Under the pieces are notes generated by a model. The model saw only the letters and a program-made list of their open reading frames with translations. It ran no database searches and was not told the origin of the DNA. The position numbers and the translations under genes are program-made. From the NCBI GenBank assembly GCA_947365245.1, contig CANAWG010000008.1, positions 1 to 64,000 of the forward strand: 64,000 nt of DNA, read 5' to 3'. Of the stretch, positions 1 to 62,990 are shown piece after piece. Source of the stretch: an uncultured Oscillibacter sp. (GTDB lineage: Bacteria > Bacillota > Clostridia > Oscillospirales > Oscillospiraceae). Within the stretch, counting starts at the first letter, position 1, and every line of letters begins with the position of its first letter.

Positions 1-124
1 GCGTCAGCCGGAAATGGAGCGGCGGAGTTTCTTCCGACGACAATGGGGGGTGCATCCCCAGCACGGGCGAAGCCCGTGCGTCGTCCCCGGCCCGAGGCCG
101 GAAAGCTCCCGTCCCCCCGCAGGG
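1..124 (+). repeat. Mosaic repeat R1 (left edge cut by window)
   Basis: Partial copy of the dispersed repeat. It carries the GGAGCGGCGGAGTTTCTTCC module, the GGGGGGTGCAT motif and then three GC hairpins: GCACGGGC/GCCCGTGC (61-79), CCGGCC/GGCCGG (87-101) and a CCCC/GGGG stem (about 113-124). The array ends 11 bases before the gyrB stop codon, so it lies at the 3' end of gyrB and may take part in 3'-end formation (inference). Related copies are at 3590, 13780, 23290, 24160, 58390, 61080 and 62720. Confidence 0.85.
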
Positions 125-135
125 GTGGCAGCCGC

Positions 136-3589: not shown

Positions 3590-3954
3590 TGCCGTGCGCT
3601 TCTGTATCCCGTCGGTAGACGAAAAGAACACCCCGCCCGTGCCCGGCCATGCGCGAAGCGCGGGCAGAGGAGCAAAAGGCCCTGCGTCCGCCCAGCGTCA
3701 ATTGCCATACTACCGATGAATAGAGCGCACCCCGGAGGGCACCCGAAAGCGCCTCTCTTTTCTCTTCCACCGTGCACGGCGCATTCTCTTTTCTCTGGCA
3801 AGACAGAGAAACGGGGCCCCCGCGCGGCCTGCCGCGTGGGGAGAGGAGGAAGGAACGGAGCTTGAGCGGAATTTTCGGCGTCAGCCGGAAATGGAGCGGC
3901 GGAGTTTCTTCCGACGATAATGGGGGGTGCATCCCCCGTCCCCCGCGGGACCCC
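3590..3954 (+). repeat. Mosaic repeat R2, single forward copy
   Basis: Fills the gap between recF and the unknown gene at 2992. It begins with a GGTAGACGAA-type segment, then the inner palindrome GCGCGAAGCGC (about 3651), the CCGTGCACGG core (about 3770), a truncated A/T hairpin (TTCTCTTTTCTCTGGC... about 3782-3810), a GGGGAGAGGAGGAAGGAACG module, the GGAGCGGCGGAGTTTCTTCC module and GGGGGGTGCAT, and ends in a GC hairpin (CCCGTCCCCCGCGGGACC) touching the recF stop. No convincing ORF is present. Confidence 0.85.
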
Positions 3955-13779: not shown

Positions 13780-14215
13780 ACTCTATTACCCGCCTCCAGC
13801 GGGGATGGGGGGATATTCCGCGCCACGGGCGCGGGACGGGGGTTTTTCCGCCCACGGGGCGGGACGAAAGTTTCCCGGCCACGGGCCGGGGACGACGCAC
13901 GGGCTTCGCCCGTGCTGGGGAATGCACCCCCCATTGTCGTCGGAAGAAACTCCGCCGCTCCATTTCCGGCTGACGCCGAAAATTCCGCTCAAGCTCCGTT
14001 CCTTCCTCCTCTCCCCACGCGGCAGGCCGCGCGGGGGCCCCGTTTCTCTGTCTTGCCAGAGAAAAGAGAATGCGCCGTGCACGGTGGAAGAGAAAAGAGA
14101 ACGCTTAGGGTGCCCTCCGGGGTTTTCTCCACTCATCGGTAGTGCTGGCGGTTGACGCTGCGTGGACGCAAGGCCCCTAGCGCCTACTCCCGCGCTTCGC
14201 GCATACCCGGGTGCG
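13780..14215 (-). repeat. Mosaic repeat R3a, reverse copy of an inverted pair
   Basis: Reverse-oriented copy: GC hairpin array (about 13812-13915, including GCACGGGC/GCCCGTGC), GCACCCCCC (reverse of the GGGGGGTGC motif), the GGAAGAAACTCCGCCGCTCC module, a gag-rich module, a truncated A/T hairpin (14043-14070), GCCGTGCACGG, and the inner palindrome GCGCTTCGCGC (about 14193). With R3b it makes a head-to-head inverted pair with hairpin arrays facing outward and no gene between. Confidence 0.85.
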
Positions 14216-14608
14216 GGCGGGCGGCTCCCCTTTCTACTATCGGTAAACGAACTCTCTTCTTCATACAGGACCGGCCATGCGCGAAGCGCGGGCAGAGGAG
14301 CAAGTCCTTGCGTCCCCGCAGCGTCAACCGCCGCACCACCGATGAATGGAGGAGACTCCGGAGGGCACCCCAAGCGCCTCTCTTTTGTCTTTGGACCGTG
14401 CACGGCCCGTTTCTATTTTCTCTGGCAAGACAGAGAAAATAGAAATGGGGGGTGCATCCTCAGCACAGGCGAAGCCTGTGCGTTCGTCCCGCGCCCGAGG
14501 CGCGGAAATCTTTCGTCCCCGCCCCGTGGGCGGAAAACTCCGTCCCGCGCCTGAGGCGCGATCCCCCCCGTCCCGCCCGCAGGCGGAAAATCCCCACACC
14601 GGAGGTAT
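14216..14608 (+). repeat. Mosaic repeat R3b, forward copy of an inverted pair
   Basis: Forward copy: a GGTAAACGAACTCTC segment, inner palindrome GCGCGAAGCGC (about 14279), CCGTGCACGG, a full A/T hairpin with arms TTCTATTTTCTCTG / CAGAGAAAATAGAA (14411-14444), GGGGGGTGCAT, then hairpins GCACAGGC/GCCTGTGC (14463-14481) and further CGCGCC/GGCGCG, CCGCCC/GGGCGG types. It ends just before the ribosome-binding site of the GH3 gene. Stem changes relative to other copies are complementary. Confidence 0.85.
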
Positions 14609-20452: not shown

Positions 20453-20683
20453 AAAAACGCCCTGAGCCGGTCGGCTCAGGGCGAACTTGCGTCCGTGGTT
20501 CCACCTGAATTTCCCCCGTTGGGGGACACTCTGCCCGGTAACGTCGGGGTGGACGGCGGGGCATTTCCGCCCCGCGGCTCCCGGGCGCCTTTCTCTCCGT
20601 CCCCCGGGAGGGCTCGCACCGAACCGCCCTCTCTCTTGGCCGGGGAAACGGGGGTACTCCTCCCGTTCATGGCCTGTTTTGCC
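20453..20683 (-). promoter_or_regulatory. Glycine T-box riboswitch of glyS
   Basis: Leader read leftward: Stem I with GGAGTA S-turn, AGAGAG bulge, GGTGCGAGCC distal region and the specifier region GAGAAAGGCGCC, where GGC (complement of 20587-20589) is a glycine codon. The T-box AGGTGGAACCACGGA is at 20492-20506, followed by the terminator CGCCCTGAGCCG / CGGCTCAGGGCG and TTTTT (20453-20483). Uncharged tRNA(Gly) should favour antitermination. Specifier and downstream gene agree. Confidence 0.93.
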
Positions 20684-20714: not shown

Positions 20715-20809
20715 GGCCTCGCCCGCCGGGGAGATTGCCCCGTGGGCGGGAAACTCCCGTTCCGCGCCCAAGGCGCGAAAAACTTCCGCCCCCTGCGGGG
20801 GAAGTTCTC
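20715..20809 (+). repeat. Solo GC-hairpin array
   Basis: A hairpin array of the kind found at the outer end of the mosaic repeats, without the rest of the element: CCGCGCCCAAGGCGCG-type and CCGCCCCC/GGGGG-type stems separated by GGGAAACTCCCGTTCC-like spacers. It ends at the stop codon of the DUF1275 gene. Confidence 0.7.
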
Positions 20810-21466
20810 TCACCGTCCCGCCCGGGCCGGCTCCCGGGCCAGCACCGCCGGCAGCGGGACCGCCAGCAGCGGCACGCACCCCCATATTCCGGCGATGCCC
20901 CACCGCCCCGTGCACCACCACCCCCAGGCCACGCCCAGATGGAAGCACACCAGCGTCCCGCCGTAGAACCGGAGCTTTCGCAGCTGCTCCGCCTCCCGGG
21001 TGCAGAGGTATTCCGTTACGCCCTCGGTGAACTGCCGCAGGTTATTGGTGGAGAAGATGGTGGCGCAGTTGTATCCGGCGGCCTGGGAAAAGGCCACCCA
21101 CTGCACCGCCGTGGCAAAGAACATGGGGTACAGGGCCAGCACGGGGTCCGTCTCCGCCGGAATGAGGGCCAGCAGCACGCAGGCCGCCAGGTCCACGGCG
21201 ACGGCGAGACGCTGCAGCCGCTCCCGCCGCCCCCGCCGCCGCAGCAGCACGGCAAAGACGATCCCCGCGATGTAGCACGCCGTGCCCCCCAGCCGGACCA
21301 GGGCGGAACCCCAGGTCCCGTCCAGTCCGGCCACCACCAGGTAGATGAGGTTGGAGGTCTCGGAGGACCCGAAGGTTCCGCCCCGGACCAGCAGCGCGTA
21401 GACCCCGAAGAAGCCGCCCGCCGCCGCCATGGCGTGGTGGCCCCAGGTCTCGTGATCGATTCTCAC
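20810..21466 (-). CDS. DUF1275 (YoaK) family membrane protein
   Basis: A 218-residue membrane protein of the DUF1275/YoaK family: GGFFGVYALLVRGGTFGSSE followed by a TSNLIYLVVAGLDG segment corresponds to the family's G-x-F-x-N-x-Q-T-G-N-region, though the usual Gln-Thr is Glu-Thr here. Five or six hydrophobic segments are visible. Function unknown. The GTG start overlaps the aspS stop by four bases (GTGA), so it is coupled to aspS. The solo hairpin array abuts its stop. Confidence 0.8.
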   Translation of the reverse strand: MRIDHETWGHHAMAAAGGFFGVYALLVRGGTFGSSETSNLIYLVVAGLDGTWGSALVRLGGTACYIAGIVFAVLLRRRGRRERLQRLAVAVDLAACVLLALIPAETDPVLALYPMFFATAVQWVAFSQAAGYNCATIFSTNNLRQFTEGVTEYLCTREAEQLRKLRFYGGTLVCFHLGVAWGWWCTGRWGIAGIWGCVPLLAVPLPAVLAREPARAGR

Positions 21467-23289: not shown

Positions 23290-23640
23290 GTTTCCGGCCC
23301 GCGGGCCGAAACGGGGGGTCCGCCCACGGGGCGGGGACGGGAGTGTCGCGCCTCGGGCGCGGGACGAGAGATTTCCCGGCCTCGGGCCGGGGACGACGAC
23401 ACGCCGGAACGGCGTGTCTGGGGACGCACCCCCCATTCTCTTTTCTCTCTCTTGCGAGAGAAAAGAGAATGCGCCGTGCACGGTGGAAGAGAAAAGAGAA
23501 CGCTTTCCCCTCCGGAGTGCGTCCCACTCATCGGAGCTGCACAGCAAACCTGATGCGTGGACGCAGGGACTTACTCCTCTGCCCGCGCTTCGCGCATGGC
23601 TGGTGCTGGGCGGGGAGAGGGGGTGTCCGCCGCTTGGACG
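23290..23640 (-). repeat. Mosaic repeat R4, reverse copy, left arm around the Xre module
   Basis: Reverse copy: hairpin array at 23297-23418 whose innermost stem is GACACGCCG/CGGCGTGTC (23398-23418), a GCACCCCCC motif, a full A/T hairpin TTCTCTTTTCTCTC / GAGAGAAAAGAGAA (23436-23469), GCCGTGCACGG, and the inner palindrome GCGCTTCGCGC (about 23588). It stops just short of the Xre gene. With R5 it forms an inverted pair enclosing the two small genes. Confidence 0.85.
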
Positions 23641-23643
23641 TAG

Positions 23644-23856
23644 TCAACGGGTGTCTGTGCGGCCTACCAGGTAGTCGATGGTGACGCCAAAATGGTCTGC
23701 CAGCTTCCAGGTGTTTTCAATGCCCGGAAGGTTTAGTCCATATTCTAATTTTTGATAATACTGCTCCGCGACCTCAATGGCGGCCGCGACCTGCACCTGC
23801 GTTTCCTTTTTTTCTTTGCGCAGCTCCTTTAGCCGCCGATTGATCACAATATCCAT
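23644..23856 (-). CDS. Xre-family helix-turn-helix regulator
   Basis: A 70-residue HTH_3 protein (MDIVINRRLKELRKEKKETQ, then VAAAIEVAEQYYQKLEYGLN and WKLADHFGVTIDYLVGRTDTR). The ATG at 23856 has AGAGGT upstream and lies just inside the palindrome ACAAACTATAGTTTGT (23871-23886) that it probably binds. It is divergent from the small gene at 23925. A similar pair is found at 61445/61743; both sit between inverted copies of the mosaic repeat. Confidence 0.88.
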   Translation of the reverse strand: MDIVINRRLKELRKEKKETQVQVAAAIEVAEQYYQKLEYGLNLPGIENTWKLADHFGVTIDYLVGRTDTR

Positions 23857-23865
23857 AAATACCTC

Positions 23866-23894
23866 TTGACACAAACTATAGTTTGTGATACTGT
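23866..23894 (+). promoter_or_regulatory. Promoter with palindromic operator between Xre gene and small gene
   Basis: Rightward -35 TTGACA (23866-23871), 17-base spacer, -10 TACTGT (23889-23894). The spacer is almost wholly occupied by the perfect 16-base palindrome ACAAACTATAGTTTGT (23871-23886); a further half-site ACAAACTAT lies at 23902-23910. Binding of the Xre protein here would block the small gene and probably its own promoter. Confidence 0.82.
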
Positions 23895-23924
23895 GAATTT
23901 AACAAACTATGTGAGGTGTTTGGC

Positions 23925-24134
23925 GTGCCTGATTTCATGAAATGGTTCTACAACGTCTACATCCAGCCTCAGCTCTATGAGATCCACGAGGGAGAATACA
24001 CCGATTACTTTCAAAATCTGATGGACGGTCTGCCGGACGGCCTCCTCCCGGACCTGCGAAAATGCGAGGAGTTCACGGCCATCCACGCCTTTCTCCTGGG
24101 CCTGCGCACAGGCCGCGGCTTACCGAGAGAATAG
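23925..24134 (+). CDS. Small helical protein divergent from Xre regulator
   Basis: A 69-residue acidic protein starting MPDFMKWFYNVYIQPQLYEI and containing YTDYFQNLMDGLPDGLLPDL and FLLGLRTGRG. A GTG at 23925 has GAGGTG six bases upstream; the ATG at 23937 is the alternative. I do not recognise it with certainty; composition and size resemble small helical proteins (DUF6809-like) often found beside Xre genes in Clostridia. Its promoter carries the palindrome described above. Confidence 0.65.
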   Translation: MPDFMKWFYNVYIQPQLYEIHEGEYTDYFQNLMDGLPDGLLPDLRKCEEFTAIHAFLLGLRTGRGLPRE

Positions 24135-24159: not shown

Positions 24160-24500
24160 CCAGCCATGCGCGAAGCGCGGACAGAGGAGCTAAGGACCTT
24201 GCGTCCACGCATCAGGTCTCCTCGGCAGCTCCGATGAATGGAGGGCACTCCGGAGGGCACCCTAAGCGTTCTCTTTTCTCTTCCACCGTGCACGGCGCAT
24301 TCTCTTTTCTCTGGCAAGACAGAGAAAAAAGAATGGGGGGTGCATTCCCCAGACACGCCGGAACGGCGTGTCGTTCGTCCCCGGCCCGAGGCCGGAAACT
24401 TCGTCCCGCGCCCGAGGCGCGAAAATCCCCGTCCCCCCGCAGGGAAATCCCCCCGTCCCGCCCCGTGGGGCGGCTCTCTCGGCAGACCCCCCGCAGGGAA
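24160..24500 (+). repeat. Mosaic repeat R5, forward copy, right arm around the Xre module
   Basis: Forward copy: inner palindrome GCGCGAAGCGC (about 24170), CCGTGCACGG, A/T hairpin (24300-24333; one arm has a G-to-A change that breaks a pair), GGGGGGTGCAT, then hairpins GACACGCCG/CGGCGTGTC (24352-24372), CCGGCC/GGCCGG, CGCGCC/GGCGCG and CCCGCAGGG-types. It ends two bases before the hisS stop codon. Its first GC stem matches that of R4, its inverted partner, and differs from the GCACGGGC stem used elsewhere. Confidence 0.85.
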
Positions 24501-25861: not shown

Positions 25862-25919
25862 GTCGTCACGCTCCTTTTGCGTTAATGGTAACATAAAAGT
25901 TTTCGTCCACCGTGCCGGG

Positions 25920-26100
25920 GTCCCCGCCGGAGCCCAGCGCAGCGGGTCCGGTGGGGAGAGGAAGAAGAAACGGAGCGGTGGAGTTTCTTCTGACGAGGGT
26001 CCAGGGGGCGGCGCCCCCTGGCATGCTCCCGTCCCTTTCGCCGTCAGGCGGAAAAAGCGGGGCAGCAAAACAGCGGAGCCGCAAAGCGGCGAGCGCCTTT
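25920..26100 (+). repeat. Mosaic repeat fragment R6 between T-box and hisS
   Basis: Diverged fragment containing the GGGGAGAGGAAGAAGAAACG and GGAGCGGTGGAGTTTCTTCT modules, a GGGGGCGGCGCCCCC hairpin (about 25999-26018) and a TTTCGCC/GGCGGAAA unit. The rest of the gap (26100-26222) shows only further GC-rich imperfect repeats and no ORF I can support. The fragment separates the T-box terminator from hisS. Confidence 0.6.
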
Positions 26101-35919: not shown

Positions 35920-37803
35920 TCAGTTTTCGGAGGCCGCCGCCAGCAAAAGACCGGTGAGAGGCGGCAGCGCCAGCTCCAGCGCACCCTCTGCCGGAGCGAA
36001 CCGCCGGCCGGTAAGCAGGTCCTCCGCCGCACCGCCCTCCCAGGGGAGGGAGAGGGTCTGCTCCTCCAAGGAGGCGTTGACCACGGTGACCAGGGACTCC
36101 GCCTCCGTCTCCCGGGCAAAGGCCAGCAGGGGACCGGCGGCGTGGAGCCAGCGGAGGGCGCCGGTCCGCAGAGCCGGCCGGCTTCGCCGCAGGCGGCCCA
36201 GGGTCCCAAACCAGCCCTGCAGGTCCCGGTCCTCGCCGCCCCAGGGATAGGTCCCCCGGTTAAAGGGGTCCTCGAAGCCCTCCACCCCGGCCTCGTCGCC
36301 GTAGTAGACCGTGGGGGCCCCGGGGAACGTGAAGAGCACCAGGGCCGCCAGACGGAGCCGCCGGAGGCCCCGGTCCCGCTCGCCGGGAGAGAGGCGGTAA
36401 GCGGCCCGCTCCTCCCGGCTCTCCAGCAGCACGTCGGCCCCCAGCACCGTCAGCACCCGGGGGGTGTCGTGGGTGCCCAGGAAGTTCATGGCTGAGTAAA
36501 AGGCCGCGGGAGGATAGTTCTCCCGCAGGGTCTCCATGGCCTCCTGGAACTGCTCCGCCCGGCCCTGGCGGAGATATTCCAGCAGGGAGGTGCGGAAAGG
36601 GTAGTTCATGACGCCGTGGAGCTCCCGGCCCAAGAGATACCGCCGCCGCCGGGAGTAGGCCACCTTGGTGCTGGCGTCCTCCCAGACCTCTCCCAGGAGG
36701 AAGGCGTCCGGGAAGTCCCGGTCCATGACGGCGCGAATCTTCTCGATGAACCAGTCCGGCAGCTCGTCGGCCACGTCCAGCCGCCAGCCGCTGGCGCCCG
36801 CCCGCAGCCAGCGGCGGATGATGGAGTCTTCCCCCTCGATGATATAGTCAATATAGCTGGGGCTCTCCTCCCGCACGGCGGGCAGGGTGCGGATGCCCCA
36901 CCAGGCGTCGTAGTCCGTGGGCCAGGGGTGGAAGGAGAACCAGTCCGCGTAGGGGCTGTCCAGGCTCTGGGCCGCGCCCACCGTGGGGTAGAAGCCGTCG
37001 GCGTTAAAATAGAGGCTCTGGGAGCCGGTGTGGTTGAACACGCCGTCCAGGATCACCCGGATGCCGTTTTCCCGGGCCTGGGCGCACAGGCAGCGGAAGT
37101 CCTCCTCCGATCCCAGCATGGGGTCGATTTTGGTGTAGTCCGCCGTGTTGTAGCGGTGGTTGGAGGCGGACTCGAAGATGGGACAGAGGTACAGCGTGGA
37201 CACGCCCATGTCCGCAAGATACGGGAGCTTAGCGGAGATGCCCGCGAGAGACCCGCCGAAGAAGTCCCGGTTGCGGACCTCCCCGTCCGGGTCCGGCCGC
37301 CACTCCGGCGCGTCCGCCCAATTCTCGTGGACCCAGCGCTCTCCCACCATGCCCGTTGGATCCGGGAGGGCCAGGCGGCAGAAGCGGTCAGGAAAAATTT
37401 GGTAGGCAATGCCCTCGCCAAACCACTCCGGCGTGGGAGTTTCCCGGTAGACCGTCAGCTGCCAGGGCTGCACCCGGCCGTCGTCGCGGTAGCCGGTGGA
37501 GTCCAGGATGCAGCCGGTGCCGTCATCCCGCCAGAAGCGGAAGTGGTACCAGACCAGATCCGGCAGCGGGGGCGCGGACACCGGCCCGGAAAAGCAGACC
37601 CGGTCCCCCTCGGGGCCGTCACAGGAGAATTCGATGTGGGCCTCCGTGGCGGAGAACTCCCCCCGGAGAATGAGGGCGCAGTGGTCGAAGCCCTCGGAGG
37701 CCAGGGGGCGGCAGTGGAACGTCACGCTCCCGCCGCAGGGGACGGCGCCGAAAGGCGTCTTGTACGCACTGCTGCGGGGATTAAAGACAAGCGGTTCACT
37801 CAT
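35920..37803 (-). CDS. GH13 alpha-glucosidase/neopullulanase-type enzyme
   Basis: A 627-residue glycoside hydrolase family 13 protein with an N-terminal starch-domain-like region (about 1-125), then the (beta/alpha)8 barrel: YQIFPDRF, VILDGVFNHTGSQS (region I), GWRLDVADELPDWF with the nucleophile Asp (region II), LLGEVWEDAS with the acid Glu (region III) and FLGTHDTPR (region IV). No signal peptide, so cytosolic degradation of maltodextrins or cyclodextrins is likely. It is 82 bases downstream of pbp2. Confidence 0.9.
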   Translation of the reverse strand: MSEPLVFNPRSSAYKTPFGAVPCGGSVTFHCRPLASEGFDHCALILRGEFSATEAHIEFSCDGPEGDRVCFSGPVSAPPLPDLVWYHFRFWRDDGTGCILDSTGYRDDGRVQPWQLTVYRETPTPEWFGEGIAYQIFPDRFCRLALPDPTGMVGERWVHENWADAPEWRPDPDGEVRNRDFFGGSLAGISAKLPYLADMGVSTLYLCPIFESASNHRYNTADYTKIDPMLGSEEDFRCLCAQARENGIRVILDGVFNHTGSQSLYFNADGFYPTVGAAQSLDSPYADWFSFHPWPTDYDAWWGIRTLPAVREESPSYIDYIIEGEDSIIRRWLRAGASGWRLDVADELPDWFIEKIRAVMDRDFPDAFLLGEVWEDASTKVAYSRRRRYLLGRELHGVMNYPFRTSLLEYLRQGRAEQFQEAMETLRENYPPAAFYSAMNFLGTHDTPRVLTVLGADVLLESREERAAYRLSPGERDRGLRRLRLAALVLFTFPGAPTVYYGDEAGVEGFEDPFNRGTYPWGGEDRDLQGWFGTLGRLRRSRPALRTGALRWLHAAGPLLAFARETEAESLVTVVNASLEEQTLSLPWEGGAAEDLLTGRRFAPAEGALELALPPLTGLLLAAASEN

Positions 37804-58230: not shown

Positions 58231-58389
58231 ATGGAAGCTATGAAGCCTTTGAAAGTAAAGATCAGCGTCTCTCTGGATGAGGAAATTGTGAAGAAACTCC
58301 GGATTTTGGCGGAGGAGGATGACCGGCAGCTCTCCTCCTATATTAACCTTGTCCTGCGGAACTACCTGCGGGAGCGGGAAAAAACTTGA
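58231..58389 (+). CDS. Ribbon-helix-helix (Arc/CopG-like) DNA-binding protein
   Basis: A 52-residue protein: VKISVSLDEEIVKKLRILAE forms the strand and first helix, DRQLSSYINLVLRNYL the second helix of an RHH fold. The ATG at 58231 is six bases after AGAGGTG. It is divergent from the mnmE series, whose promoter contains a 14-base palindrome; autoregulation and control of that series are plausible. Its stop is followed at once by the hairpin end of mosaic repeat R7a. Confidence 0.82.
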   Translation: MEAMKPLKVKISVSLDEEIVKKLRILAEEDDRQLSSYINLVLRNYLREREKT

Positions 58390-58858
58390 GCGGAGGTTCC
58401 ACCCCGCCGGGGGAACGGGGAGATTTCGCGCCGCGGGCGCGGGGACGGGGGATGCACCCCCCATTTCTCTTTTCTCTCTCTTGCGAGAGAAAAGAGAAAC
58501 GGGCCGTGCACGGTCCTCGTCGGAAGAAACTCCGCCGCTCCATTTCCGGCTGGCGCCGAAAATTCCGCTTGAGCTCCGTTCCTTCCTCCTCTCCCCGCCA
58601 GACCCGCTTCGCTGGGCTCCGGCGGGGGCCCCAATCCAAGAGAACGCCGGGGCGAGAATTTGCCCATGCGGGCAAATTTCGCCCAAAAATACGGGGGCTG
58701 TTCTGAATCGGTGCCAATGTGAGTTGCCAGTCTCCTGCCGGGTGCGCCTGACTTTTTATCTCGCGGAGGTGCGCTCCCGCATTTGCGGGTGCCTGCGAGG
58801 CTGTTTTGCTGCTTTGACGCAAGGCCCCTAGCGCCTCTGCCCGCGCTTCGCGCATGGC
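58390..58858 (-). repeat. Mosaic repeat R7a, reverse copy of an inverted pair
   Basis: Reverse copy: hairpin array (58397-58450, CGCGCC/GGGCGCG-type), GCACCCCCC, full A/T hairpin TTTCTCTTTTCTCTC / GAGAGAAAAGAGAAA (58464-58499), GCCGTGCACGG, GGAAGAAACTCCGCCGCTCC module, then a unique stretch (about 58635-58815) with several small hairpins (e.g. GAATTTGCCC-atgc-GGGCAAATTTC, 58668-58691) and no supported ORF, then the inner palindrome GCGCTTCGCGC (about 58844). Confidence 0.82.
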
Positions 58859-59190
58859 CGGTCCTGTGTGGAGAAGAGAGTTCGTTTACCGATGGCAGGA
58901 GGGGAGCCGCCCGCCCGCACCCGGGTATGCGCGAAGCGCGGGCAGAGAAGAAAGTCCCTGCGTCCCCGCAGCGTCAACCGCCGTACTGCCGATGAATGGA
59001 GAAAACTCCGGAGGGCACCCCAAGCGTTCTCTTTTCTCTTCCACCGTGCACGGCGCATTCTCTTTTCTCTGGCAAGACAGAGAAAAGAGAATGGGGGGTG
59101 CATTCCCAGCACGGGCAAAGCCCGTGCGCCGTCCCCGCCCCGTGGGCGGAAAAACTCCGTCCCGCGCCCGCGGCGCGATTCCCCCGTGGT
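58859..59190 (+). repeat. Mosaic repeat R7b, forward copy of an inverted pair
   Basis: Forward copy: GAGTTCGTTTACCGATGG segment, inner palindrome GCGCGAAGCGC (about 58928), CCGTGCACGG, full A/T hairpin TTCTCTTTTCTCTG / CAGAGAAAAGAGAA (59058-59091), GGGGGGTGCAT, then GCACGGGC/GCCCGTGC (about 59109-59127), CCGCCC/GGGCGG and CGCGCC/GGCGCG hairpins. It ends shortly before the lepA terminator. Confidence 0.85.
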
Positions 59191-59204
59191 TTTCGGAAAC
59201 TGAG

Positions 59205-61079: not shown

Positions 61080-61443
61080 TTTTGGATACCCTGCGGGAAT
61101 ACAGGGATTTTCGCGCCACGGGCGCGGGGACGGGGGTTTCCCGGCCTCGGGCCGGGGACGACGCACGGGCTTCGCCCGTGCTGGGGATGCACCCCCCATT
61201 CTCTTTTCTCTCTCTTGCGAGAGAAAAGAGAATGCGCCGTGCACGGTGGAAGAGAAAAGAGAACGCTATGGGTGCTCTCCGGGATGCGCTCCATTCATCG
61301 GAGCTGCGGAGGAGACTTAATGCGTGGACGCAAGGCCTCAGGCTCCTCTGCCCGCGCTTCGCGCATGGCTGGTGCAGATCGAGAGCACGGAGAATCGCGC
61401 CCCAGGGGCGCGGGGATCCCGCCGCGGGCGGGGGAGAGGGCGC
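61080..61443 (-). repeat. Mosaic repeat R8, reverse copy, left arm around second Xre module
   Basis: Reverse copy: CCCTGCGGGAATACAGGG (61088), hairpins CGCGCC/GGCGCG, CCGGCC/GGCCGG and GCACGGGC/GCCCGTGC (61113-61181), GCACCCCCC, full A/T hairpin TTCTCTTTTCTCTC / GAGAGAAAAGAGAA (61199-61232), GCCGTGCACGG, inner palindrome GCGCTTCGCGC (about 61357) and a GC-rich tail to 61443. Confidence 0.85.
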
Positions 61444-61444
61444 C

Positions 61445-61654
61445 TTATTTGCCGGGGTGGTCGTGGCAGATTAAGTCATCTACGGTGATGCCGTAGAAAT
61501 CCGCCAGCGCAATCAGCGTCGACAGTTTGGACTCCCGCTTGCCCAGCTCGTAATTTTGATACCCTCTCCAGCTGAGGCCAATTTTTTCCGCCAGCTCCGT
61601 TTGCTTTAGACCGTGAGCTCTTCTCAGCAGTAAGAGATGCTCTGGAAATGTCAT
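61445..61654 (-). CDS. Xre-family helix-turn-helix regulator
   Basis: A 69-residue HTH protein: MTFPEHLLLLRRAHGLKQTE, LAEKIGLSWRGYQNYELGKR and LIALADFYGITVDDLICHD. Divergent from a 46-codon gene at 61743, with an ACACAC-gaat-GTGTGT inverted repeat (61674-61689) between them. Same layout as the pair at 23644/23925, though the protein sequences differ, so the modules are analogous rather than recent copies. Confidence 0.88.
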   Translation of the reverse strand: MTFPEHLLLLRRAHGLKQTELAEKIGLSWRGYQNYELGKRESKLSTLIALADFYGITVDDLICHDHPGK

Positions 61655-61697: not shown

Positions 61698-61742
61698 GGA
61701 TGCACACAAACGTAAAGGTCGATGCTTTTGCGGGAGAACAAT

Positions 61743-61883
61743 ATGGAAGACTATATTACAATTTTGCTGGAAGCATGGGAAGAATGTGACCGGGAATACC
61801 TTGGATGGGAGTATTACATGCAGTCGGAGCGGGCGATGGGGGCCTGGGAGCGGTTGGACGAGACCATTTCCGATCAATTATAG
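61743..61883 (+). CDS. Small acidic helical protein divergent from Xre regulator (possibly truncated)
   Basis: A 46-codon gene: MEDYITILLEAWEECDREYL, GWEYYMQSERAMGAWERLDE, TISDQL. GGGAGAAC precedes the ATG. Base composition drops sharply after codon 43, where the A/T-rich island starts; a gene fragment of matching character lies at 62578, so the original protein may have continued into that fragment before an insertion. Function unknown. Confidence 0.6.
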   Translation: MEDYITILLEAWEECDREYLGWEYYMQSERAMGAWERLDETISDQL

Positions 61884-62029: not shown

Positions 62030-62467
62030 TTAATTTTGCAAACTCCTCGATAAACTGGAATTTTCAGTGATTTTGCCACAAATGTGCGTACTCATTTCAA
62101 ACCAATTTATCAACCTGCCGCATTTAGGGCATTTGTGTTCAACTATTTTTTCGCTGATCCATTGTGAAACCCCGACCGCTTTCATACGCAGAGAATCAGG
62201 AATCACATTTGCGTGATTACAGATCCCATTGATAACAGGTTTTGTACTGAACTCTTTTAGTTTTGTGCAGGGAAATTCCCCACATTCATAACAACGTGTA
62301 ACGTTGTTATGAATAGCACAATCTAAGAATCCATGGTCAGCGCAGCCCTTACATCCCTCACGCACAAATTCAGAAAGGCAACCATGGCATTCATTGGGAA
62401 AGGACGGACATGCTCCACAGAATAGGCCACATATAGATGCACACTTTTCGTCAGGAATTCTCTGCAT
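62030..62467 (-). CDS. DUF3795-like Cys-rich protein
   Basis: A 145-residue protein: CASICGLFCGACPSFPNECH, then GCLSEFVREGCKGCADHGFL, DC-IHNNVTRCYECGEFPC, resembling DUF3795 (GLYCGAC start with several CxxC pairs). A second CPKCGRLINW-type zinc knuckle is at the C-terminus. GGGAG lies nine bases before the ATG. Markedly A/T-rich relative to neighbours and bracketed by short direct repeats, so probably an acquired insert. Function unknown; metal binding is likely. Confidence 0.75.
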   Translation of the reverse strand: MQRIPDEKCASICGLFCGACPSFPNECHGCLSEFVREGCKGCADHGFLDCAIHNNVTRCYECGEFPCTKLKEFSTKPVINGICNHANVIPDSLRMKAVGVSQWISEKIVEHKCPKCGRLINWFEMSTHICGKITENSSLSRSLQN

Positions 62468-62549
62468 AAACTTGTTCTCCCAAATCTGAATTTGTCGAGC
62501 TGTACACAGAAAAGCACAGCATGACAGAGCAAACAAATCTGCCAAGGTA

Positions 62550-62719: not shown

Positions 62720-62990
62720 ATCCATGCGCGAAGCGCGGGCAGAGGAGCGAAAGTCCCTGCGTCCACGCAGCGTTGACCGCCGTTCTACCGATGAATGGAG
62801 AAAACTTGCGGAGGGCACCCCAAGCCTTCTTTTTCTCTTTTGGACCGTGCACGGCCCGTTTTCTCAATTTCTTCGCGAAGAAAATGAGAAAATGGGGGGT
62901 GCATCCCCTCGTCCCCGCCCCGTGGGCGGAAACCCCTCGTCCCCGCCCCGTGGCGGGAAACTCCCGTCCCGGCCCGCAGGCCGTGCCCGC
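62720..62990 (+). repeat. Mosaic repeat R9, forward copy, right arm around second Xre module
   Basis: Forward copy: inner palindrome GCGCGAAGCGC (about 62726), GACCGTGCACGG (about 62843), an A/T hairpin with wholly different arms (TTTTCTCAATTTCTTCG / CGAAGAAAATGAGAAAA, 62859-62892, one mismatch), GGGGGGTGCAT, then hairpins CCGCCC/GGGCGG and CCGGCCCGCAGGCC-type. It ends at the stop codon of the last gene. Confidence 0.85.

What the first reader, a model, noticed from the sequence alone, without database searches (positions are those of the whole stretch)
13780..14608. Dispersed mosaic repeat family with inverted-pair architecture
At least nine copies or pieces of a 250-400-base element occur in this window, all intergenic. 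Full copies share an order: inner palindrome GCGCGAAGCGC, a GTCC...CGTCCACGCAGCGT-like stretch, CCGTGCACGG core, an A/T hairpin, GGGGGGTGCAT, then a GC-hairpin array. Copies pair head to head (13780-14608, 58390-59190, 23290/24160, 61080/62720) so that arrays face outward. No transposase is encoded. The regular order and pairing suggest a non-autonomous mobile or structural element family that I do not recognise.
Basis: seen in the sequence. Interest (0 to 1): 0.85.

Follow-up and report, generated by a model that had tools for sequence, protein, structure and literature searches.

The report
Paired triple-helix repeats in gut bacteria
Gut bacteria related to Oscillibacter carry many copies of a paired, mirror-arranged DNA repeat that seems to move between genes and whose ends can fold back into a three-stranded helix, a structure rarely shown to be preserved by evolution.

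Summary
The window has nine CCGTGCACGG cores, in four head-to-head pairs plus one lone half, with hairpins and outward arrays; the genome has 43 cores.

The missed key feature: the pyrimidine tract before the core is the mirror image of the hairpin's pyrimidine arm and changes with it. The shared run is longer as mirror than as direct repeat in 52 of 64 combinations, equal in 11, shorter in 1: the signature of a single-strand triple helix. A structure model finds the same fold, with other cores, in 16 of 106 genera of the family. In 28 such matches mirror beats direct in 24, ties in 3, loses in 1; the outer helix changes compensatorily.

It is mobile: nine copies in a relative are 90-97% identical in unrelated flanks, and relatives have sites without it. 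Some pairs carry an XRE regulator. No transposase or target duplication was found.

Best reading: a non-autonomous inverted-dimer element whose folded single-stranded ends are recognised in trans. Mobility and three-strand covariation are shown; the enzyme, and triplex formation in cells, are inferred.

The parts
1..128 (+). Core-less outer fragment at the contig start: mosaic module, GGGGGGTGCAT, GC hairpin, one CGTC-tagged unit
   Evidence: (D10, D14, I14)
3632..3950 (+). Lone half: inner palindrome, domain, tract, core 3770, hairpin whose 3' arm is cut by an inserted module, GGGGGGTGCAT
   Evidence: (I1)
13795..14213 (-). Left half of pair 1: outward CGTC-tagged array (13818-13894), hairpin, inserted module 13937-14036, truncated hairpin, core 14075, inner domain
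14276..14590 (+). Right half of pair 1: inner palindrome, domain, mirror tract, core 14396, 19-bp hairpin, GGGGGGTGCAT, hairpin, four CGTC-tagged units
   Evidence: G006 has a site without the pair
20741..20830 (.). Isolated array-like fragment without core
   Evidence: D12, D18
23295..23603 (-). Left half of pair 2 (A type; GGGGGGTGCG variant), core 23474
23644..23874 (-). Cargo: XRE-type regulator (HTH_3)
   Evidence: E=6e-12
23916..24134 (+). Cargo: small protein divergent from the regulator; no Pfam family at E<=0.01
24161..24490 (+). Right half of pair 2 (A type), core 24286, with outward CGTC-tagged array
25917..26015 (+). Fragment of the mosaic module, no core
   Evidence: I17, D14
58405..58860 (-). 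Left half of pair 3 (B type), core 58504; tract replaced by the mosaic module, so no third strand here
58925..59180 (+). Right half of pair 3 (A type), core 59044
61095..61372 (-). Left half of pair 4 (A type), core 61237
61445..61654 (-). Cargo: XRE-type regulator (HTH_3)
   Evidence: E=4.7e-13
61722..61883 (+). Cargo: small ORF divergent from the regulator
   Evidence: not scanned
62030..62545 (-). Cargo: cysteine-rich ORF of about 171 aa, no Pfam family at E<=0.01
62724..62983 (+). Right half of pair 4 (B type), core 62845; arm has internal mismatches

Best explanation
It is a non-autonomous mobile DNA element made of two structured halves placed head to head. Each half ends in one fold: a pyrimidine tract, a short linker, an outer helix (TGCAC with GTGCA in the own genome), and a long hairpin with a pyrimidine 5' arm and a purine 3' arm. 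The tract can lie parallel to the purine arm as a Hoogsteen third strand. Sequence drifts freely while all strands stay matched; inner domains and outer GC-hairpin arrays differ between lineages. The simplest mechanism is that an enzyme acting in trans recognises these folded single-stranded ends, as HUH transposases do for IS200/IS605 and REP/REPIN elements (recalled), and moves the pair with whatever lies between the halves. Shown: dispersal, a common outer end in one relative, sites without the element, pairing, hairpin, outer-helix and mirror covariation. Inferred: that the triplex forms, that it acts as DNA rather than RNA, and that a trans-acting (possibly Y1 HUH) enzyme is used.
For: Mobility: nine paired copies in G478 are 90-97% identical over about 590 bp, flanks at the unrelated level (median 0.60, maximum 0.65). 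Sites without the element: five comparisons, two. Dimer unit: 42 of 42 close neighbours '-' then '+'; outside the genus 15 '-' then '+' neighbours 364-632 apart among the listed places, against one same-direction pair. Hairpin: 20 halves, 97.5% of 404 cells paired, 13 of 21 pairs change on both sides, 56 double-change cells against a shuffled mean of 14.3, 0 of 500 as high; slid controls at most 69.4%. Third strand, CCGTGCACGG family: 70 combinations, mirror match 686/816, shuffled mean 516, SD 11.6, maximum 559 of 2000; run length mirror longer 52, equal 11, shorter 1 of 64; clearly asymmetric arms 47, 6, 0 of 53. Third strand, other genera: 28 matches in 20 loci, mirror longer 24, equal 3, shorter 1; summed mirror run 295 against 209 (SD 7.7, maximum 236) with tracts shuffled and 236 for direct runs. 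Model R3 does not encode any mirror rule. A blind finder gives 7 hits in about 108 kb of G139 and none in shuffled or reversed sequence. Outer helix: 5 of 5 pairs change on both sides. Orientation to genes near random: outer gene start 90, end 78. Any Y1_Tnp (HUH) match: 10 of 13 many-copy genomes, 1 of 13 without a model match.
Against: No transposase was seen inside the pairs read. The Y1 link is indirect: 3 of 13 many-copy genomes have no Y1 match (G456, G214, G020), many matches are fragments, and G141 has five without the element; no half lies in any of the 12 Y1 loci read; the own genome has one partial match. No target-site duplication was seen by eye, but flanks at about 74-88% identity would hide a short one. 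Two sites without the element still hold GC hairpins (L059; G033 near 308.5 kb), so arrays can exist without the core. Not every copy keeps three strands: 3 of 168 distinct own and named halves lack a pyrimidine tract, and at 3770 and 14075 the arm is truncated. Direct repetition reaches 79% agreement at one register, because many arms are nearly symmetric. The number of further pair types is not above shuffles (19 against 20.2). Lone halves are as common as paired ones (94 against 74 scored), so the pair may not be the only mobile form. No structure or mobility was measured.
Confidence: 0.52

Rival explanations
1. The half is a structured RNA. The triplex forms in a transcript (U.A-U and C+.G-C triples), and the element spreads or acts as RNA, for example copied by a reverse transcriptase.
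For: A G-U pair is common at the stem base (GU 12, AU 4, UA 3, GC 1 of 20; GU 4, GC 3 of 7), as RNA tolerates. Each half has a fixed 5'-to-3' order and folds strongly. PMC4666352 states that pyrimidine-motif intrastrand triplexes also occur in RNA (passage).
Against: Orientation to genes is near random (90/78 outer, 37/28 inner, by mechanical ORFs). RVT_1 is not clearly tied to the element: 8 of 13 many-copy against 5 of 13 copy-less genomes. Inside the arms there is almost no G-U intermediate. No promoter was sought.
Confidence: 0.2
2. No dedicated transposase. The folded repeats stall replication and break, and repair by ectopic recombination copies and shuffles them, giving mosaics, singles and rearrangements.
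For: Synteny between G478 and G033 breaks at 6 of 8 element junctions against 12 of 61 other gaps, p = 0.003; lone halves 5 of 5, pairs 1 of 3. Modules are swapped between copies, and the inner part is inverted between L223 and L224 (by eye). PMC4666352 links another triplex repeat in E. coli to instability (abstract and sections read).
Against: Paired copies with the same ends lie in unrelated flanks; homology-driven copying needs homology at the new site. Repeats cause synteny breaks however they spread, and these are draft assemblies in which repeats can be misjoined (an N lies beside the L227 copy).
Confidence: 0.18
3. A conventional MITE of a DDE-type IS, with long inverted ends and duplicated targets hidden by divergence.
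For: Long inverted ends, no transposase, cargo between the ends.
Against: No fixed short terminal repeat or duplication was seen in seven comparisons by eye. A DDE end does not need a folded stem with a mirror third strand kept in many genera while the sequence changes. DDE families were not searched.
Confidence: 0.1
4. The mirror relation is a by-product: both tracts are simple pyrimidine runs, or the tract is a displaced direct copy of the arm.
For: Many arms are nearly mirror-symmetric, and direct repetition agrees in 79% of cells at shift +3. One of 28 matches elsewhere (L387) favours direct by one base.
Against: For 53 combinations with clearly asymmetric arms the mirror run is longer in 47, equal in 6, shorter in 0; exact mirror runs reach 17 bases. 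The same holds in other genera (24, 3, 1 of 28). Shuffled tracts never reach the observed agreement.
Confidence: 0.04

Closest known systems
REP / BIME / REPIN elements, including GTAG- and CGTC-tagged palindromic repeats (PMC3733652: abstract, passages and section 6 read)
   Same: Dispersed, mosaic, dimeric in opposite orientation. Array hairpins in the window carry the CGTC tag: 23 of 33 CGTCC-hairpin units found lie in element arrays, all pointing outward. That paper says CGTC REPs lack a known transposase.
   Different: Each half is about 280-330 bases, not 20-40. Array units are in tandem in one direction, stems begin with G/C rather than AT, and the conserved fold with mirror tract has no counterpart in what I read. 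No dedicated RAYT was found. In G139 the pair read shows no array at all (by eye).
Intrastrand triplex repeats in bacteria: TM_ECO / BoxC / PIT and the ITxF catalogue (PMC4666352: abstract, passages, sections 15, 16 and part 1 of 20 read)
   Same: Three tracts in one strand that can form a triple helix; dispersed in many copies; tied to genome rearrangement.
   Different: TM_ECO is a G/C-rich purine-motif triplex with stems of 9 and loops of 3-6. Here the third strand is a pyrimidine tract 5' of the hairpin, arms tested are 8-17 bases, and the first loop is about 13-19 nt and holds an outer-helix strand; ITxF searched loops of 1-6 nt. Here the three strands vary together.
MITEs and other miniature inverted-repeat elements (review PMC10969869: search listing only)
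   Same: Non-autonomous, inverted ends, some with passenger sequence.
   Different: No target-site duplication or parent IS found; ends are folds rather than a fixed sequence.
Neisseria intergenic mosaic elements and dRS3 repeats (recalled; PMC3733652 section 6 equates dRS3 with CGTC-1)
   Same: Clusters of CGTC-tagged palindromes around variable modules.
   Different: No mirror tract known to me (recalled, not tested).
Foldback transposons (recalled; one search found no paper with both search terms)
   Same: Long inverted ends with internal repeats and variable cargo.
   Different: Known to me from eukaryotes; no sequence relation tested.

Membership tests
CGTC-tagged REP | Unpaired CGTC tag at one end of a palindrome | tested here: met
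   Array units CGTCCC + GC stem; 23 of 33 units lie in element arrays
CGTC-tagged REP | Stem of 8-9 bp that begins with AT pairs, tail CCA | tested here: not met
   Array stems read are G/C from the first pair; the finder itself demanded GC-rich stems, so this rests on reading the arrays. Definition
CGTC-tagged REP | Mostly close head-to-head dimers | tested here: not met
   Units in one array all point outward, in tandem; only whole halves are head to head
REPIN / GTAG REP | Inverted pair of the same repeat as the mobile unit | tested here: met
   42 of 42 close pairs; near-identical paired copies in unrelated flanks; 15 pairs outside the genus
REPIN / GTAG REP | GTAG tag and a dedicated RAYT flanked by the repeat | tested here: not met
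   No GTAG tag at the ends printed; no half in any of the 12 Y1 loci read; window has GTAGGGGC only at 36949
MITE of a known IS | Target-site duplication | tested here: inconclusive
   None seen by eye in seven comparisons at about 74-88% flank identity
MITE of a known IS | Autonomous relative with the same ends | tested here: inconclusive
   67 outer-hairpin sites in G478 listed, 30 made into loci, not read one by one for transposases
TM_ECO / BoxC triplex repeat | Consensus CCCTCNCCC...GGGNGAGGG...GGGNGAGGG (purine motif) | tested here: not met
   Order is pyrimidine, pyrimidine, purine with A/T-rich tracts; consensus
Intrastrand triplex motif (general) | Three tracts in one strand that satisfy the parallel (mirror) third-strand rule | tested here: met
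Intrastrand triplex motif (general) | The triplex forms | not testable with these tools
   Needs CD, NMR or chemical probing
Known structured RNA family | Match to an Rfam model at gathering score | tested here: not met
   Only a T-box at 20474-20679 in the window; 17 matches below gathering score in 58380-59200

The most novel reading that the evidence does not exclude
A class of mobile elements defined by a fold rather than by a sequence: an outer helix plus an intramolecular triple helix at both ends of a head-to-head pair. All strands drift together over many genera while the triplex is kept, and a trans-acting enzyme reads the folded single strand.
Probability: 0.38. Interest if true: 0.92.

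Novelty: new variant of a known kind. Interest (0 to 1): 0.78.

Why it matters
Natural triple helices are mostly proposed from sequence or shown in a test tube. Here the three strands change together in dozens of arm variants and in many genera, which is evolutionary evidence that such a structure is kept, and the variants are ready material to test it. If an enzyme reads the fold, that would be an unusual way to recognise DNA ends. The elements are abundant in common gut bacteria, can carry small regulator genes, and lie at sites of genome rearrangement.

Tried and rejected
Known RNA family: no Rfam match at gathering score except a nearby T-box. Phage or plasmid origin: one weak phage match, no plasmid match, one edge-of-contig hit in viral contigs. 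Reverse transcriptase link: 8 of 13 against 5 of 13, not distinctive. Lagging-strand bias of lone halves: GC skew too weak to use. Three gene-sized gaps between G478 and G033 were ordinary gene differences. Untranslated regulatory role: orientation to genes near random. First covariance model R1 used a structure one column off and was discarded for R2.

What the counts rest on. One search read 209 halves; L103 and L131 (no hairpin) and L076 (from then on) were dropped as chance matches. The 20 rows of A1 were picked for diversity. The named set overlaps G478 and G033 (equal contig lengths; inference), so pair-type counts overlap; the mirror tests use distinct combinations. The genus search scored at most 54 candidates per genome, the family search 16, the order search 17, so copy numbers near those are lower bounds. 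Tallies include the own genome. The 13+13 genomes were chosen by me. Alignment A3 was fitted to R3's structure, and 5 of its 33 rows are antisense readings that one search left out. Of five order loci outside the family, four show the mirror tract by eye and one (L391) does not. Many genomes are incomplete drafts, so absence is uncertain and repeats may be misjoined.

Papers: searches found no description of this family; subscription journals and preprints are not held. PMC4666352: abstract, passages, sections 15, 16, part 1 of 20. PMC3733652: abstract, passages, section 6. PMC7283042: passages, nothing on this repeat. All others: listing only. Recalled, from no call: IS200/IS605 and RAYT chemistry, triplet preferences, dRS3/NIME and foldback facts.

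They mended several statements and found the fold in other genera, so I raised the best explanation slightly, the novel case and the interest, and lowered the by-product rival.

Full report
WHAT WAS CHECKED. The window is contig 8, bases 1-64000, of a 2.82 Mb genome held in 53 contigs. The repeats are present: nine CCGTGCACGG cores, four head-to-head pairs, one lone half (3770) and three core-less fragments. The genome has 43 cores; the reversed pattern has one. Thirty-seven are followed within 25-55 bases by GGGGGGTGCA. Records with the strict pattern are titled Oscillibacter, Dysosmobacter, Oscillospiraceae bacterium and Candidatus Pseudoscilispira (list cut at its limit; three unrelated chance matches dropped).

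ANATOMY OF A HALF (own genome, from inside outwards): a palindrome GCGCGAAGCGC 112-119 bases before the core (8 of 9 window cores); a domain with TGCGTCCACGCA and GATGAATGGAG; a pyrimidine tract; GGA (B type) or CCA (A type); CCGTGCACGG; CCCG (B) or CGCA (A); pyrimidine arm, loop, purine arm; TGGGGGGTGCAT; a GC hairpin; an outward array of GC hairpins. Of 33 CGTCC-tagged hairpins found in the window, 23 lie in element arrays and all of these point outward. Folded as single-stranded DNA, the half 14278-14600 forms the stem TGCAC / GTGCA with a GG/GG internal loop and a 19-bp helix, z = -5.6.

HAIRPIN COVARIATION. In 20 halves picked for diversity, 97.5% of 404 cells pair, 13 of 21 pairs change on both sides and 56 cells show double changes (shuffled mean 14.3, none of 500 as high); slid partners pair in 69% or less. 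The count of further pair types is not raised (19 against 20.2). In the arm, changes are U-A to C-G with almost no G-U intermediates; at the stem base a G-U pair is common.

THE MIRROR TRACT. The tract next to the core is the reverse, not the complement, of the pyrimidine arm: arm TTTTCTCTTTTTCTTC with tract CTTCTTTTTCTCTTTT; arm TTTTCTCTTTTCCTTC with tract CTTCCTTTTCTCTTTT; arm TTTTCTTTTCCG with tract GCCTTTTCTTTT. Over 70 distinct combinations 686 of 816 cells agree in mirror order; shuffled tracts give a mean of 516 (SD 11.6, maximum 559 of 2000). A register scan peaks at 0.852 for the mirror at shift 0; reverse complement stays at or below 0.061; direct repetition reaches 0.79 at shift +3 because many arms are nearly symmetric. 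The fair test is run length: mirror longer in 52 of 64, equal in 11, shorter in 1; for 53 clearly asymmetric arms 47, 6 and 0. One tract per distinct arm (25 arms): 207.5 of 250 against 161.7 (SD 6.8, maximum 184). Mirror order is what a pyrimidine-motif Hoogsteen third strand needs, because it runs parallel to the purine strand. I know of no copying error that makes mirror repeats, so I read this as selection for a triple helix. In the 14396 copy the arm has an A interruption and the tract a G opposite it, the preferred G.T-A triplet (recalled); other A interruptions have T, so this is no rule.

THE SAME FOLD WITH OTHER SEQUENCES. Three weak R2 matches in another genus (G139) proved to have a different core but the same architecture, for example tract CTTTGCTTTCTTT, linker with TGTGA, arm TTTCTTTCCTTTC, 3' strand TCACA. 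A blind finder that knows only hairpin and mirror rule gave 7 hits in about 108 kb of G139 and none in shuffled or reversed sequence; it also found 3 of the window's halves. Seven G139 halves: 94.5% of 146 cells paired, 11 of 21 pairs with double changes. Model R3 built from them matches 25 of 300 family genomes in 16 of 106 genera and 12 of 295 order genomes. In 28 sense matches from 20 loci the mirror run is longer than the direct run in 24, equal in 3, shorter in 1; the sum of mirror runs is 295 against 209 (SD 7.7, maximum 236) when tracts are shuffled. In the fitted alignment all five outer-helix pairs show changes on both sides, such as C-G 15 and G-C 14 at one pair. Outer helices read include TGCAC/GTGCA, TCCAC/GTGGA, TGTGA/TCACA, ACGAC/GTCGT and CCAGGA/TCCTGG. 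Among listed places outside the genus 15 neighbours are '-' then '+', 364-632 apart, and one pair (G178) points the same way. Of five order loci outside the family, four show the mirror tract by eye, one does not. The G139 pair at L366 6221-6655 has no GC array (by eye): the fold, not the array, is what lineages share.

EXCEPTIONS. Three of 168 distinct own and named halves have no pyrimidine tract, the window's 58504 among them. At 3770 and 14075 a module of about 100 bases cuts the purine arm. L387 fits direct order better by one base.

PAIRS AND CARGO. All 42 close pairs first examined are '-' then '+', 308 to 1598 bases apart. In the own genome 12 of 12 pairs with two strict cores join A to B; the 23.4-24.3 kb pair, left out by the strict pattern, is A with A. 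In the named loci 17 of 27 are B with B, in G478 10 of 11 (the sets overlap). Several longer pairs hold an XRE-type regulator (HTH_3) divergent from a small protein, in one relative weakly similar to DUF6809 just under its cut-off. The 61.2-62.8 kb pair also holds a cysteine-rich ORF. Other long pairs hold no obvious gene.

MOBILITY. In G478 nine paired copies are 90-97% identical while flanks are not (median 0.60). The outer hairpin is present in 43 of 46 halves and the end AGGGCGAG in 37 of 46, after which sequences diverge. Relatives lack the element at orthologous places in seven comparisons, with no visible target duplication at about 74-88% flank identity; two of these places hold GC hairpins (L059; G033 near 308.5 kb). 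A relative can also carry a half elsewhere in the same intergenic region (L093).

REARRANGEMENT. Between G478 and G033, synteny breaks at 6 of 8 element junctions against 12 of 61 other gaps (p = 0.003); lone halves make five of the six. The sample is small, and draft assemblies can misjoin repeats.

DISTRIBUTION. Model R2 matches 62 of 86 genus genomes at E <= 0.001 and 2 of 147 order genomes at E <= 0.0001. The strict pattern matches 10 of 400 family genomes in 4 of 106 genera. These tallies include the own genome. In G478 the outer hairpin occurs 67 times, the reversed control never.

WHICH ENZYME. Any Y1_Tnp match occurs in 10 of 13 many-copy genomes and 1 of 13 without a model match; reverse transcriptases in 8 and 5 of 13. 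Y1 matches include fragments, IS200-type proteins and RAYT-like ORFs, and no half lies in the 12 Y1 loci read. This is a hint, not an identification.

ASSESSMENT. Shown: a real, many-copy family; head-to-head pairing; dispersal; covariation of hairpin, outer helix and third strand in many genera; synteny breaks. Inferred: that the triplex forms in cells; that DNA rather than RNA is the functional form (near-random orientation to genes); that an enzyme in trans reads the folded ends. It works like a REPIN or MITE but is not filed as either: GTAG tag and flanked RAYT are absent, the CGTC stem rule is not met, no target duplication is shown. It is not TM_ECO, a purine-motif triplex with short loops (PMC4666352).

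Noticed in passing
window 20474-20679 (-): T-box leader (Rfam RF00230, 109.9 bits), the only Rfam match in the window at gathering score.
   Followed up: no
L230, L231, L234, L235, L241, L244, L248, L249 (inner side of lone halves): Lone halves in G478 often end inside with a GAATC..GATTC hairpin, then TTCTATCGATAGAA and a TAGGGGC-type palindrome like a GTAG REP; the lone half may be a second mobile form (by eye).
   Followed up: partly
L309, L310, L311, L312: RAYT-like Y1 transposase ORFs of about 165-185 aa in many-copy genomes, without the element in the locus.
   Followed up: partly
L001 / L020 (own genome contig 14): Partial IS200-type transposase match (69 of 121 positions, 37 bits), the only Y1 match in the own genome.
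   Followed up: partly
window 62030-62545 (-): Cysteine-rich ORF between the halves of pair 4, in a part of the window with lower GC; no Pfam family at E<=0.01.
   Followed up: partly
L032, L057, L110 (between halves): Some pairs enclose other repeat-like sequence with TGTAGGGGC-type palindromes instead of genes.
   Followed up: no
window 1-59, 3818-3936, 13937-14036, 58517-58616, 25957-26015: A separate module (TCGTCGGAAGAAACTCCGCCGCTCC...) sits at different positions of different halves.
   Followed up: partly
L390, L393 and L389, L392 (other families of the order): Weak R3 matches with an outer helix and mirror tract by eye, so the fold may reach beyond the family.
   Followed up: partly
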